Below, one piece after another: positions 11,642 to 21,580 of a stretch of 33,654 nucleotides of DNA. Numbering within the stretch: the first letter of the stretch is position 1; each line of letters begins with the position of its first letter. Source of the DNA: Streptomyces sp. MUM 178J (GTDB lineage: Bacteria; Actinomycetota; Actinomycetes; Streptomycetales; Streptomycetaceae); assembly GCF_022414575.1 (NCBI RefSeq), contig NZ_JADWYQ010000059.1, positions 1 to 33,654 of the forward strand. The letters are read 5' to 3'. Made by a program: the position numbers and the translations under genes. The notes beneath the pieces are model-generated. The model made no database searches. It saw only the letters and a list, made by a program, of their open reading frames with translations, and was not told the origin of the DNA.

Positions 11642-13270
11642 TCACCGCCAAAGCAGCGCGATGGCCCCCAGTGCGACGAACACCGCCGCGTACACGCCGA
11701 GCACCGTGCGCAGCACCCGGCTGGGATCCACGGTCGCCGTCGCCGTCGCCGTCGCCGTCGCCGTGGCCGTGGCCGTGGCCGACGCGGTCGCCGCCGCGGG
11801 GGCCTGGACCAGCACCGCGCCCGCGCCCGCGCCCGTACCCGTACCCGTACCCGTACCCGTACCCGTACCCGTACCCGTACCCGTACCCGTACCCGTACCC
11901 GAACCGGCGGACTCCCCGTACGCGCCCCCGGGCTCATCGCGCGGGCCGGGCGCGCTCTGGGCGAGCTGGGCCGCCAGTACCACGCGGGCGACCGCCGCCC
12001 CGGAGGCCAGCGCGGCGCTGACGTTCTGGACCGCGACCAGCTGGACCGCCGGATAGCCGAGGACCTGAGCCGTCGCGCCCTGGCTGGCCGCGAACATCGC
12101 GTTGGCCCCGGTGTTGGAGCCGGCCAGGAAGCCGCCTGCCGCGCCGATCCACGGTGCGAGGACGAGATACGCGGGGCCCAGACCGGCCGCCGCCTCCGCG
12201 ATGACGCGGCTCATCCCGGACGCGGTCAGCAGAGTGCCGAGCGCCAGGAAGACGACGGTCGTCACGGTCACCAGCCACCACCGGCCCAGCGTCTCCCGCA
12301 CGGCGGCGCCCAGCACGGAGTCCCGCGCGCCGAGCAGCCGCGGGGTCAGCGCCACGGTCAGCAGCAGCCAGCCGGCGGGGCCCGCCAGGACCGCCCACCA
12401 GCCCTCCTCCACGCCCGCCGCGGCCAGCGCCGCCCGCCCGGCGAGGAGCCCGGCGACCAGGAAGCCGTACGGGGCGAGAGTGCGGGCGATCGGCTCCGCC
12501 GCCTGCCGGGGGCCGTCCTGGGCGCGAGAGGCCAGCAGCAGCACCGCGATCACCGCAAGGCCGCCCAGCACACCGGCGAGCGGCACGCCGACGAAGGCGT
12601 TGACGGCCCATACGACGGTCCACAGCGTGCCCACGGCCAGCAGCCAGTCGGCCGCCAGGGACAGCGCGCCCCGCACCCCGTATGCCACGGCCAGCGCCGC
12701 CGCCGCGCAGATCGCGAAGACCGGCGCGGACAGCAGCGCCGAGTAGACGCCCAGTTCCTGGAAGCCGACCCCGCCGAGCTGGGCGGCCACCAGACTGCCC
12801 GGGGCCAGCGACCCCCACGGCACGGTGACCAGGCCAAGCAGGCCAACGACGGCCGCCTTCGCCGGGGGCAGTCCGAGCTGCCGCAGCAGGGGGATGGCGA
12901 CGATGACGCCGATGCCGAAGCCGGTGAGCGACTCGGCGAACGGCGTCACACCGAGCAGCACCAGCAGCACGGCGCGCCCCGGCGTCCTGCACGCCCCGCC
13001 GATCCAGTCGCCCAGCCGCCGCTGCGCGCCCGTCCGGCTCATCAGCTCGCTCAGCAGGATGCCGCCGAAGAGGATCGCGGCCAGTTCCACGGCCGTGGGC
13101 AGCATATGCAGCCCTGAGTCGGCGAGTTCGCGGAGCGGCGTGCGGAAGGCCAGCGCGGTGAGCACGGCCGCCGTGACGAGCGCGGCGAGGGCCGCGTACA
13201 GGGCCTTCACCCGCGCGGCGAGCAGGCCGAGGGTGACCAGGATGGGAAGTGTGGCGAGTGCCGCGTTCAC
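11642..13270 (-). CDS. LctP/LldP-type lactate permease family transporter
   Basis: 542 residues from GTG 13270, which overlaps the stop of the FAD gene by four bases (GTGA), so translation is coupled. About 13 hydrophobic segments are visible. Family signatures include LAAILFGGILLSELM, GVTPFAESLTGFGIGVIVAIPLLRQLG, GLVTVPWGSLAPGSLVAAQLGG, GGFLAGSNTGANAMFAASQ and VQLVAVQNVSAALASGAAVARV, all typical of L-lactate permease (LctP/LldP, PF02652), which moves lactate or glycolate with protons. A hydrophilic loop before the last helix has been expanded by two hexanucleotide repeats encoding (Ala-Thr)n and (Gly-Thr)n. Coupling to the FAD and sbn genes suggests it moves a small hydroxy- or amino-acid of that pathway rather than housekeeping lactate; this is inference. 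Confidence 0.88.
   Translation of the reverse strand: MNAALATLPILVTLGLLAARVKALYAALAALVTAAVLTALAFRTPLRELADSGLHMLPTAVELAAILFGGILLSELMSRTGAQRRLGDWIGGACRTPGRAVLLVLLGVTPFAESLTGFGIGVIVAIPLLRQLGLPPAKAAVVGLLGLVTVPWGSLAPGSLVAAQLGGVGFQELGVYSALLSAPVFAICAAAALAVAYGVRGALSLAADWLLAVGTLWTVVWAVNAFVGVPLAGVLGGLAVIAVLLLASRAQDGPRQAAEPIARTLAPYGFLVAGLLAGRAALAAAGVEEGWWAVLAGPAGWLLLTVALTPRLLGARDSVLGAAVRETLGRWWLVTVTTVVFLALGTLLTASGMSRVIAEAAAGLGPAYLVLAPWIGAAGGFLAGSNTGANAMFAASQGATAQVLGYPAVQLVAVQNVSAALASGAAVARVVLAAQLAQSAPGPRDEPGGAYGESAGSGTGTGTGTGTGTGTGTGTGTGTGAGAGAVLVQAPAAATASATATATATATATATATVDPSRVLRTVLGVYAAVFVALGAIALLWR
11733..11780. repeat. Hexanucleotide repeat (8 copies) in lctP, encodes Ala-Thr
   Basis: Five GTCGCC units followed by three GTGGCC units. 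On the minus strand they encode alternating Ala and Thr. The unit is six bases, so copy-number change keeps the frame. Confidence 0.92.
11832..11897. repeat. Hexanucleotide repeat (11 perfect copies) in lctP, encodes Gly-Thr
   Basis: Eleven identical CCCGTA units encode (Gly-Thr)11 on the minus strand. Perfect identity over 66 bp suggests recent expansion by slippage. It lies in the hydrophilic loop before the last membrane helix. Confidence 0.95.
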
Positions 13271-19723: not shown

Positions 19724-21580
19724 CTACAGCTCGACCCGGACGCCGTAGAACGTGACCCAGGCGTTGAACTCGATCAGCCGCTCCAGCACGGCGCGGGCGC
19801 TCCAGGGGCCGCCGACGTTGTACGAGCCCTCCGGCACGTCCAGCAGCCGGCGGACCTCCTCCTCCGACACGATCTGCAGCACCGGGGCGCCCTCGGTGAG
19901 CAGCGCCTCCACCCGCTCCCGCAGCGCCAGTTCGTACTTCCGGTCCTGCGTCGAGGGGTACGGGTTCTTCTTGCGGTCCAGCACCGAGTCCGGCAGCACG
20001 CCCCGCATGGCGGCGCGCAGCAGGCTCTTCTCCCGGCCGTCGAAGGTCTTCATCGCCCACGGCGTGTTGTAGACGTACTCGACGAGACGGTGGTCGGTGA
20101 ACGGCACCCGCACCTCAAGGCTGACGGCCATGCTGATGCGGTCCTTGCGGTCCAGCAGGAAGTTCTCCCAGCGGGTGAGGTTGAGATACGTGACCTCACG
20201 CATCCGCGCCTCCAGACCGCTCTCGTCGGCCAGCCGCGGCACCTCCTCCAGCGCCTGTGCGTAGCGCTCCTTGACGTACTCGTCGAGCCCCAGCCGGTCC
20301 CACAGCCCGACGGTGCGCAGCGCGCCGATGCCGCCGGCCTTCTCGAAGGGGTGGTGCCACGGGAAGGAGCCGTTCTCCACGGCCTCCTTGTCGTGGAACC
20401 AGGTGTAGCCGCCGAACAGCTCGTCCGCGGCCTCGCCGGAGAGCGCGACCGTCATCCGCTCCTTCAGCGCCCGGCACAGGATGAGCAGCGAGTACTCCAT
20501 GTCGCCCGTGGACACCGGCAGGTCCTGGGCGCGCAGCACGGTCTCGCGGACCTCGTCGTCGAGGATGTCGGCGTTGTCCAGCTCGACGATGATGTGCTCG
20601 GCGCCGACGTGCTTCGCCACCTCGACAGCGAACGGGGTGTCGGGGTCCTCCCACTGGACGTTGGACTCAAAGCGCTCCTCGTGGCCCTTGAAGTCCACGG
20701 AGAACGCCCGGATGGGCTGCTCCACGCCCTGCTTGGCGAGCGCCTTCGCGGCCAGCGCCGTCACCGCGCTGGAGTCCAGGCCGCCGGAGAGCAGGGTGCC
20801 GACGGTGACGTCCGCGACGAGCTGCCGCTCGACGATGTCCTCCAGCAGCTCGCGGACGTGGGCGACGGTCGCGTCCAGGTCGTCGGTGTGCGGACGGGCC
20901 GTCAGCTCCCAGTACCTGCGGCTGCTGATCAGCCCCTCGCGGCCGAAGCGCATCACGGTCGCGGGCAGCACCTCGTGCATGCCGCGGAACACCGCGTGCC
21001 CCGGGGTCTTCACAATGCTGAAGACCTCCCGCAGGCCGTCGGCGTCGACGACGGCCTCGGCGTCCTCGTGGGCCAGGATGCCCTTCGGCTCGGAGGCGAA
21101 CAGCAGGCCGCCGTCCGCGGTCGGGTAGTAGTAGAGCGGCTTGACGCCCATCCGGTCGCGGACCAGGAGCAGTTCCTCGATGCGCGGGTCCCAGATGGCG
21201 AAGGCGTAGATGCCGTTGAGGCGCTCCGCGAAGTGCTCACCCCACTCGACGTAGGCGCGCAGCACGACCTCGGTGTCGGACGTCGTGCGGAACTGGTGGC
21301 CGAGGCCCTCGAGCTCCTCGCGCAGCTCGCGGAAGTTGTAGACCTCGCCCGTGTAGGTGATGACCGGCAGCGAGTCGTCCTCGGCGGCCGCCATCGGCTG
21401 CTTACCGCCCTCGAGGTCGATGATCGCGAGCCGACGGTGCCCGAGGATCGCGTGGGGCGAGGTCCACAGCCCCCAGGCGTCCGGGCCCCGGCATTCCATG
21501 GTGTGGGTCATGGCCGCAGCCATGTCCTCGTACGCGGTCAGATCGCGCTGGTGGCTAACCCATCCGGCAAGGCCGCACAT
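19724..21580 (-). CDS. asnB: Asparagine synthase (glutamine-hydrolysing) family amidotransferase
   Basis: 618 residues from ATG 21580. Class II glutaminase domain (1-210): nucleophile Cys2 in MCGLAGWV, RRLAIIDLEGGKQPM, TYTGEVYNF, SDTEVVLRAYVEWG. Synthetase domain (about 225-600): PP-loop LLSGGLDSSAVTALAA, VTVALSGEAADELFGGY, RKDRISMAVSLEVRVPFTDHRLVEY and GREKSLLRAA. All residues for ammonia transfer and acyl-adenylate formation appear present, so it should be active. Cys2 distinguishes it from beta-lactam synthetases, which have lost it. It could be a plain asparagine synthetase or a pathway enzyme that amidates a carboxylate; its place at the head of the Dap gene row favours the second (inference). 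The leader is the 508-base region shared with the divergent XRE gene. Confidence 0.92.
   Translation of the reverse strand: MCGLAGWVSHQRDLTAYEDMAAAMTHTMECRGPDAWGLWTSPHAILGHRRLAIIDLEGGKQPMAAAEDDSLPVITYTGEVYNFRELREELEGLGHQFRTTSDTEVVLRAYVEWGEHFAERLNGIYAFAIWDPRIEELLLVRDRMGVKPLYYYPTADGGLLFASEPKGILAHEDAEAVVDADGLREVFSIVKTPGHAVFRGMHEVLPATVMRFGREGLISSRRYWELTARPHTDDLDATVAHVRELLEDIVERQLVADVTVGTLLSGGLDSSAVTALAAKALAKQGVEQPIRAFSVDFKGHEERFESNVQWEDPDTPFAVEVAKHVGAEHIIVELDNADILDDEVRETVLRAQDLPVSTGDMEYSLLILCRALKERMTVALSGEAADELFGGYTWFHDKEAVENGSFPWHHPFEKAGGIGALRTVGLWDRLGLDEYVKERYAQALEEVPRLADESGLEARMREVTYLNLTRWENFLLDRKDRISMAVSLEVRVPFTDHRLVEYVYNTPWAMKTFDGREKSLLRAAMRGVLPDSVLDRKKNPYPSTQDRKYELALRERVEALLTEGAPVLQIVSEEEVRRLLDVPEGSYNVGGPWSARAVLERLIEFNAWVTFYGVRVEL

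What the first reader, a model, noticed from the sequence alone, without database searches (positions are those of the whole stretch)
11642..21580. Compact seven-gene L-2,3-diaminopropionate cluster without NRPS or siderophore synthetase: candidate undescribed pathway
Seen: asnB-like, dsbA-like, SDR, sbnA, sbnB, FAD/NAD(P) protein and lctP-type permease in a row on the minus strand, the last four with 1-base overlap, 3-base gap and 4-base overlap. Known: SbnA+SbnB make L-Dap from O-phosphoserine and glutamate (staphyloferrin B pathway; zwittermicin and related). Inference: with an amidotransferase, oxidoreductases and a small-acid permease but no assembly line, the product is likely a small free or amidated Dap-derived amino acid, perhaps N-oxidised.
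Basis: partly seen in the sequence, partly recalled or inferred. Interest (0 to 1): 0.85.

Follow-up and report, generated by a model that had tools for sequence, protein, structure and literature searches.

The report
Portable diaminopropionate N-oxidation gene cassette
A Streptomyces-type bacterium carries a tight four-gene set that very probably makes the small amino acid diaminopropionate, adds oxygen to one of its nitrogens and moves the product across the membrane; the three-gene core recurs in distantly related bacteria and I found no described product, so it is a good lead for an unknown natural amino acid.

Summary
The conserved module is sbnA-sbnB-PF13454-permease (11642-17750, minus strand). 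A capped scan with the PF13454 protein gave 76 loci; 57 have sbnA-sbnB directly upstream in the same order, in Actinomycetota, Pseudomonas and Burkholderia; plasmids of Deefgea and Rhizobium carry it too. AsnB, the DsbA-like protein and the SDR accompany it in 1 of 76 loci and stand without sbnAB in another genome, so they are probably not core. The PF13454 protein is homologous to L-aspartate N-hydroxylase (PDB 8cp2), but its substrate site differs in 77 of 77 proteins compared: Asn413 is Asp or Glu, and N413E is a published mutation that abolishes aspartate hydroxylation. A CreE-type paralog in the same genome keeps Asn. Best reading: SbnA/SbnB make L-Dap, the flavoenzyme N-oxidises it, the permease moves the product. 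Substrate, nitrogen, oxidation state and product are inferred. The Asp/Glu switch is also present in 16 loci without sbnB, so it marks a clade rather than Dap itself. My literature searches listed no characterised match.

The parts
16485..17750 (-). sbnA: PLP enzyme of the L-2,3-diaminopropionate pathway, with a low-complexity C-terminal tail
   Evidence: TIGR03945 405.5 bits, cut-off 349.95; best solved relatives S. aureus SbnA 5d84-5d87; start
15478..16485 (-). sbnB: dehydrogenase of the L-2,3-diaminopropionate pathway
   Evidence: TIGR03944 417.3 bits, cut-off 326.9; solved relative 4m54 group, annotated putative ornithine cyclodeaminase
13267..15474 (-). NMO: PF13454 flavin monooxygenase, proposed L-Dap N-hydroxylase
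   Evidence: PF13454 114 bits, cut-off 21.8; only solved relative 8cp2/8cp5, 302 bits by profile and 207 by single sequence
13927..13929 (-). Codon of Glu516 of the NMO, aligned to Asn413 of aspartate N-hydroxylase
   Evidence: Alignment; Asp or Glu in 77 of 77 proteins
11642..13270 (-). LctP-superfamily permease
   Evidence: PF02652 96 bits, cut-off 27; homologs in 17 of 76 loci, also found with the Deefgea permease as query
17944..18714 (-). SDR-family oxidoreductase; neighbouring module, link to the quartet unproven
   Evidence: PF13561 164 bits; start; trio separable
18863..19582 (-). DsbA-like thioredoxin-fold protein with CPWA instead of CxxC; neighbouring module
   Evidence: PF01323 34.8 bits, cut-off 25.6; sequence
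19724..21580 (-). AsnB-like glutamine-dependent amidotransferase with N-terminal Cys; neighbouring module
   Evidence: TIGR01536 503.7 bits, cut-off 267.1; best solved relative 7ylz, named hydroxyamidotransferase, 595 bits

Best explanation
The functional core is the quartet sbnA-sbnB-NMO-permease. SbnA joins O-phospho-L-serine with L-glutamate and SbnB oxidises the adduct to release L-2,3-diaminopropionate (known for the family; not tested here). The PF13454 enzyme, a class B flavin monooxygenase related to aspartate N-hydroxylase, then N-hydroxylates L-Dap, most likely on the side-chain nitrogen, giving N3-hydroxy-L-Dap or a more oxidised form (inferred). The LctP-type permease moves this small amino acid across the membrane, probably outwards (inferred). 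AsnB-DsbA-SDR is a neighbouring module whose link is possible but unproven. Shown here: the genes, their conserved linkage, the enzyme's family and its altered substrate site. Inferred: substrate, position and degree of oxidation, direction of transport, biological role.
For: Both Dap-pathway genes exceed equivalog cut-offs. sbnA-sbnB lie directly upstream of the NMO gene in 57 of 76 loci found with the NMO alone, and on Deefgea and Rhizobium plasmids. A homologous permease is in the window and 17 of 76 loci, from actinobacteria and Pseudomonas. The NMO's only solved relative is L-aspartate N-hydroxylase. Asn62, Arg266, Arg409, Arg412 and Arg416 are kept in 77 of 77 and Arg13 in 76, while Asn413 becomes Asp (66) or Glu (11) and Arg577 becomes Ser or Thr (75); N413E abolished Asp hydroxylation but not NADPH oxidation in the published enzyme (PMC10404684 section 8). 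The CreE-type paralogs L001 and L098 keep the aspartate set. SerA-like genes in several relatives and ThrH in two fit an O-phosphoserine route. Relatives add hydrazine-forming genes or a carbamoyltransferase, which fits N-O chemistry.
Against: No substrate has been tested. The Asp/Glu switch is also in 16 loci without sbnB and in plasmid proteins without sbnAB (L161, L164, L166), so it does not by itself specify Dap. Arg276, another Asp-binding residue, is still Arg in 27 of 77. PF13454 enzymes studied so far oxidise more than once, so N-hydroxy-Dap may not be the end. The window NMO carries an insert of about 70 residues after position 207 that 27 of the other 28 aligned sequences lack; its effect is unknown. 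Permease direction is unknown. 19 of 76 loci lack the complete ordered triad.
Confidence: 0.55

Rival explanations
1. The triad is a nitrite (or other NOx) generator: Dap is oxidised repeatedly to a nitro or nitroso compound that releases nitrite, replacing the CreE/CreD aspartate-nitrosuccinate pathway.
For: The closest studied enzymes oxidise their substrate several times (PMC10404684 passages). P. syringae-group loci pair the triad with a cupin/MetRS/lysine-monooxygenase set; according to a review table, triacsin has a lysine hydroxylase and an Asp hydroxylase/lyase pair (PMC7347517 passages).
Against: Burkholderia loci add a carbamoyltransferase, which suits a retained N-OH better; a free-standing quartet with a permease needs no nitrite; no lyase was found among 19 window ORFs scanned.
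Confidence: 0.17
2. The PF13454 protein is an ordinary aspartate N-hydroxylase of the CreE/FzmM type that happens to sit beside Dap genes.
For: Full-length homology to 8cp2 and conserved catalytic residues.
Against: Asn413 replaced by Asp/Glu in 77 of 77 and Arg577 by Ser/Thr in 75 of 77; N413E inactivates the known enzyme for Asp; the same genome has a real CreE-type protein (863 bits to 8cp2); linkage to sbnAB in 57 of 76 loci.
Confidence: 0.06
3. All seven genes form one pathway to an amidated or hydroxamate Dap product, with AsnB acting as an amide or hydroxyamide synthetase.
For: All seven are on one strand and are adjacent in two species, the window and L010, whose downstream neighbours differ; AsnB's best solved relative is named hydroxyamidotransferase.
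Against: Trio absent from the other 75 loci by tblastn; trio alone in L097; gaps of 141-193 bases; a second AsnB of the genome has the same best solved relative (516 bits); relatives at 80% or more in many actinobacteria are named asparagine synthase.
Confidence: 0.15
4. sbnA-sbnB supply Dap to a siderophore or peptide made elsewhere in the genome, and the NMO and permease are incidental.
For: The genome has two IucA/IucC genes on contig C25 and an NRPS cluster on C12.
Against: The C12 NRPS cluster has its own sbnB-sbnA; the quartet's frames overlap or nearly touch; only 1 of 77 sequences (L022, not a triad) had an NRPS-like hit and none a NIS hit.
Confidence: 0.07

Closest known systems
SbnA/SbnB L-Dap synthase pair (staphyloferrin B and other Dap products)
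   Same: Both proteins exceed the curated family cut-offs; best solved relative of SbnA is S. aureus SbnA
   Different: No IucA/IucC-type synthetase and no NRPS in the window; followed by an N-oxygenase and a permease
CreE/FzmM-type L-aspartate N-hydroxylase (PDB 8cp2)
   Same: Full-length homology and conserved FAD/NADPH-side residues
   Different: Asp-binding residues Asn413 and Arg577 replaced; no lyase partner found in the window; linked to Dap genes
L-alanosine cluster (aln/ala)
   Same: Dap N-hydroxylation is proposed there (PMC11705231 and PMC7347517 passages)
   Different: There Dap is carrier-bound and the hydroxylase (AlnG) is acyl-CoA-dehydrogenase-like according to those reviews; no NRPS-like protein here. 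The original papers were not read (not held)
Cupin/MetRS/lysine-monooxygenase N-N bond clusters (s56-p1, triacsin, pyrazomycin; P. syringae relatives of this cassette)
   Same: The same triad is joined to such genes in 21 of 57 triad loci (domains checked in L060)
   Different: None of these genes was found among the window ORFs scanned
TsnB9-type hydroxyamidotransferase cassette (trichostatin, benzohydroxamate)
   Same: The window AsnB aligns over 609 residues with 7ylz, 595 bits; that 7ylz is TsnB9 is recalled
   Different: AsnB belongs to a widespread actinobacterial group; partners TsnB6 and TsnB7 (PMC13418202 part 1 of 4) were not seen

Membership tests
SbnA/SbnB L-Dap synthase | Both proteins over the NCBIfam equivalog cut-offs | tested here: met
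   405.5 against 349.95 and 417.3 against 326.9 bits
SbnA/SbnB L-Dap synthase | Makes L-Dap from O-phosphoserine and glutamate | not testable with these tools
   Needs enzyme assay
Staphyloferrin B-type or other NIS siderophore cluster | IucA/IucC synthetase nearby | tested here: not met
   No hit in the window or 76 loci with one NIS protein of the genome; the genome's two copies are on contig C25
NRPS Dap cluster | Condensation/adenylation/carrier proteins nearby | tested here: not met
   No hit in the window; 1 of 77 sequences (L022) hit; query domains checked
CreE/FzmM aspartate N-hydroxylase | Homologous three-domain flavin monooxygenase with conserved catalytic residues | tested here: met
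   302 bits by profile; Asn62, Arg266, Arg409, Arg412, Arg416 in 77 of 77
CreE/FzmM aspartate N-hydroxylase | Aspartate-binding set Arg13, Arg276, Asn413, Arg416, Arg577 | tested here: not met
   Window has Arg, Ala, Glu, Arg, Ser; Asn413 absent in 77 of 77
CreE/FzmM aspartate N-hydroxylase | Adjacent nitrosuccinate lyase (CreD/FzmL) | tested here: not met
   No lyase family among 19 window ORFs scanned with Pfam; not every ORF was scanned
L-alanosine cluster | Carrier-protein-bound Dap | tested here: not met
   No NRPS-like hit and no PP-binding family in the scanned window ORFs
TsnB9 hydroxyamidotransferase | AsnB-like enzyme that transfers hydroxylamine, with TsnB6/TsnB7 partners | tested here: inconclusive
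   595 bits to 7ylz, but a second genomic AsnB also has it as best solved relative (516 bits); partners not searched for by sequence
LctP lactate permease | NCBIfam lctP subfamily cut-off | tested here: not met
   88 against 341 bits; superfamily PF02652 met, 96 against 27

The most novel reading that the evidence does not exclude
A previously unrecognised family of L-Dap N-hydroxylases, marked by a natural Asn-to-Asp/Glu switch in the substrate chamber of the CreE/FzmM fold, forms a portable sbnA-sbnB-NMO cassette that actinobacteria and alpha-, beta- and gammaproteobacteria use to make N-oxidised Dap, either as a free antimetabolite or as a building block for compounds with N-O and N-N bonds.
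Probability: 0.5. Interest if true: 0.75.

Novelty: new variant of a known kind. Interest (0 to 1): 0.6.

Why it matters
If right, it adds a substrate class to the iterative N-oxygenating flavoenzymes, can be settled by a one-enzyme assay, and names a small mobile cassette behind unexplored amino acids in Streptomyces, Pseudomonas and others. The residue switch gives a concrete rule for telling aspartate (nitrite-making) PF13454 enzymes from the rest in genome mining.

Tried and rejected
Considered and set aside: a seven-gene unit (trio separable); AsnB as a dedicated hydroxyamidotransferase; the PF13454 protein as a plain aspartate N-hydroxylase; Dap for an NRPS or siderophore in trans. Led nowhere: promoter and terminator scan (0 found); Rfam and tRNA searches (0). 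Literature: searches (6 papers; HpyO, 9; 7; 3; 4; 3; 15 of 19 listed; 15 of 158 listed; 15 of 17 listed) and 81 (0) listed no characterised sbnA-sbnB-PF13454 cluster or Dap N-hydroxylase of this family; the library holds open-licence papers only, so absence is not proof.
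Full report
OBSERVATION. The window is a whole 33,654-base contig (C59) of a 6.63 Mb genome in 127 contigs; the nearest named relative of its PF13454 protein is from Streptomyces sp. PR69 (84%). The seven genes exist as described. SbnA (16485-17750) and SbnB (15478-16485) exceed the NCBIfam equivalog cut-offs. The PF13454 protein, called NMO below (13267-15474), and the permease (11642-13270) follow in overlapping or nearly touching frames; the SbnA and permease GTG starts have GGAGG-type bases upstream. 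AsnB, DsbA-like and SDR precede them with gaps of 141, 148 and 193 bases.

WHAT IS CONSERVED. I aligned the NMO with 28 close relatives (A1) and scanned the collection of one genome for each of 84,980 species. 103 stretches matched one of two peptide patterns, 100 encoded a relative, the best 80 were kept, giving 76 loci; the count is therefore capped and biased to good matches. In 57 of 76 loci sbnA (at least 45% identical) and sbnB lie upstream of the NMO in order; L035, L056 and L066 are partial or rearranged; 16 lack sbnB. Triad loci come from Streptomyces and other Actinomycetota, Pseudomonas and Burkholderia. On plasmids, tblastn gave 56 records. I looked at six of them: Deefgea piscis has sbnA, sbnB, FAD/NAD(P)-binding protein, thrH and L-lactate permease annotated in a row, with IS66- and IS30-family genes on either side; Rhizobium sp. 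CB3171 and Streptomyces nigrescens also have the triad; Methylomagnum, Vibrio lentus and Burkholderia stagnalis have an NMO relative without sbnAB. The S. nigrescens plasmid is the same record as L036. A homologous LctP-type permease is in the window and in 17 of 76 loci: 8 of the window's clade and 9 Pseudomonas loci.

In 295 genomes of the window's genus, 150 had an SbnB match at E 1e-90. I fetched 19 of the best non-own SbnB loci: 5 of 19 carry the NMO and 6 of 19 show NRPS-like hits. Four of those 5 are probably records already counted (L013, L025, L017, L021). So the NMO-linked form is a minority of sbnAB loci.

WHAT IS NOT CONSERVED. Of the 76 loci only L010 (Streptomyces sp. PR69) has AsnB-DsbA-SDR beside the quartet: AsnB 97%, DsbA 93%, SDR 97%, SbnA 80%, SbnB 93%, NMO 84%, permease 88%. 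In genome G030 the trio stands without Dap genes (L097: 86, 73, 74%), and that genome had no SbnB match at E 1e-90. In a set of 61 genomes, 10 including the own genome have any DsbA-like match; I fetched six of those places. I conclude that these are two neighbouring modules; joint function is possible but unproven.

THE FLAVOENZYME. Its only PDB relative by sequence is 8cp2/8cp5, the L-aspartate N-hydroxylase of Streptomyces sp. V2: 302 bits with the profile, 207 with the single sequence. That enzyme holds Asp in an entry chamber through Arg13, Arg276, Arg416, Arg577 and Asn413, and N413E kept NADPH oxidation but lost Asp hydroxylation (PMC10404684: passages, section 8). In 77 proteins (window plus 76 loci) Asn62, Arg266, Arg409, Arg412 and Arg416 are invariant and Arg13 is kept in 76. 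Asn413 is Asp (66) or Glu (11); Trp51 is His (77); Val571 is Tyr (77); Arg577 is Ser (47), Thr (28) or Arg (2, both Halomonas); Arg276 is Arg in 27 and varies in the rest. The window residue is Glu516. The CreE-type paralog of the same genome (L001/L160; 863 bits to 8cp2) and the one in L098 keep the aspartate set. In the tree (quick method with long-branch warnings) the three CreE-type rows form one group (100) apart from the triad rows, and the two Halomonas rows fall on their side of the midpoint root although they carry the Asp switch. An acidic residue where the aspartate enzyme has Asn is what one expects for a substrate with an extra amino group, such as Dap. But the switch is also present in the 16 loci without sbnB and in the three sbnAB-free plasmid proteins, so it marks the clade, not Dap itself.

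NEIGHBOURS IN RELATIVES. P. syringae-group loci add a cupin, a MetRS-like protein, a DAO-type oxidase, a periplasmic-binding-like protein and a Lys/Orn monooxygenase before sbnA, and LysE, Fe-ADH and a PF00144 protein after the NMO (domains checked in L060 only; others by clustering). The MetRS cluster is in 21 of 57 triad loci. Cupin/MetRS/lysine-hydroxylase sets make N-N bonds (PMC8664883 passages); their presence in P. syringae was noted in 2010, with cysteine synthase and ornithine cyclodeaminase among the neighbours of some such operons (PMC2922099 passages). A second Pseudomonas group has GST, permease and an aminotransferase-type GntR regulator (domains checked in L050). L038 and L046 (Burkholderia) have a carbamoyltransferase and a small LysE-like protein (carbamoyltransferase domain checked in L038; the rest by clustering). 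A second Streptomyces group has a PF01053 PLP enzyme and a BenE transporter (checked in L040; BenE cluster in 12 of 57). SerA-like genes follow in several loci of the window's clade but not in the window. A ThrH relative is in 1 of 76 loci (L046) and in Deefgea. SerA and ThrH both touch phosphoserine metabolism, which fits SbnA. The common thread is Dap plus N-oxidation plus a transporter, with variable finishing.

MECHANISM. O-phosphoserine and glutamate to L-Dap (family knowledge), N-hydroxylation (inferred from homology, linkage and pocket change), transport (inferred). N3 is favoured over N2 because N3-hydroxy-Dap is the intermediate proposed for alanosine (PMC11705231 passages) and because a carbamoyltransferase could act on a retained N-OH; this is inference. 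Whether oxidation stops at N-OH or goes on to nitroso or nitro is open, and a nitrite-releasing variant remains a serious rival.

KNOWN OR NEW. Literature searches listed no characterised sbnA-sbnB-PF13454 cluster. The library is open-licence only, MIBiG was not available, and the original alanosine papers were not read. Alanosine is nearest in chemistry but uses carrier-bound Dap and a different type of hydroxylase according to two reviews (passages).

Noticed in passing
L001 / L160 6909-9047 (own genome, contig C62): A CreE-type PF13454 protein, 863 bits to aspartate N-hydroxylase 8cp2 with the Asp-binding residues kept; by eye no nitrosuccinate-lyase-like ORF beside it.
   Followed up: partly
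L103 9065-17150 (own genome, contig C12): A second sbnB-sbnA pair directly before NRPS proteins (AMP-binding, PP-binding, Condensation, Thioesterase domains).
   Followed up: partly
L016 3637-11842 and loci such as L020, L027, L031, L052, L077: NMO relatives without sbnB sit with a GHMP kinase and a methyltransferase, often an AlaX-type tRNA-editing protein; L016 also has ArgH-like and ATP-grasp proteins. The editing protein might be self-protection against an amino-acid analogue.
   Followed up: partly
L148, L150, L152, L153: A different Streptomyces Dap cluster: sbnA-sbnB, then about 1 kb later an AsnB-like protein (31-33% to the window AsnB), no PF13454 gene; in L148 a 363-aa protein between them matches no Pfam family.
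   Followed up: no
L098 3252-18000: In another Streptomyces-genus genome a CreE-type NMO lies near an AMP-binding protein, a DsbA-like protein (66%) and an AsnB (69%).
   Followed up: no
window 11733-11905, 15407-15467, 16705-16822: In-frame short tandem repeats in the permease C-terminal part, the NMO N-terminus and the SbnA C-terminal tail; the NMO also has an insert of about 70 residues shared only with the PR69 protein among 29 aligned.
   Followed up: no
L162 2507-11733 (Deefgea piscis plasmid): The quartet plus thrH with IS66- and IS30-family genes on either side on a 42.7-kb plasmid, suggesting mobility.
   Followed up: partly
L161 8944-13149 (Methylomagnum ishizawai plasmid): NMO relative without sbnAB, in a row with di-heme and FAD oxidoreductases, a glutathione S-transferase, a haloacid dehalogenase and a DMT transporter.
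   Followed up: no
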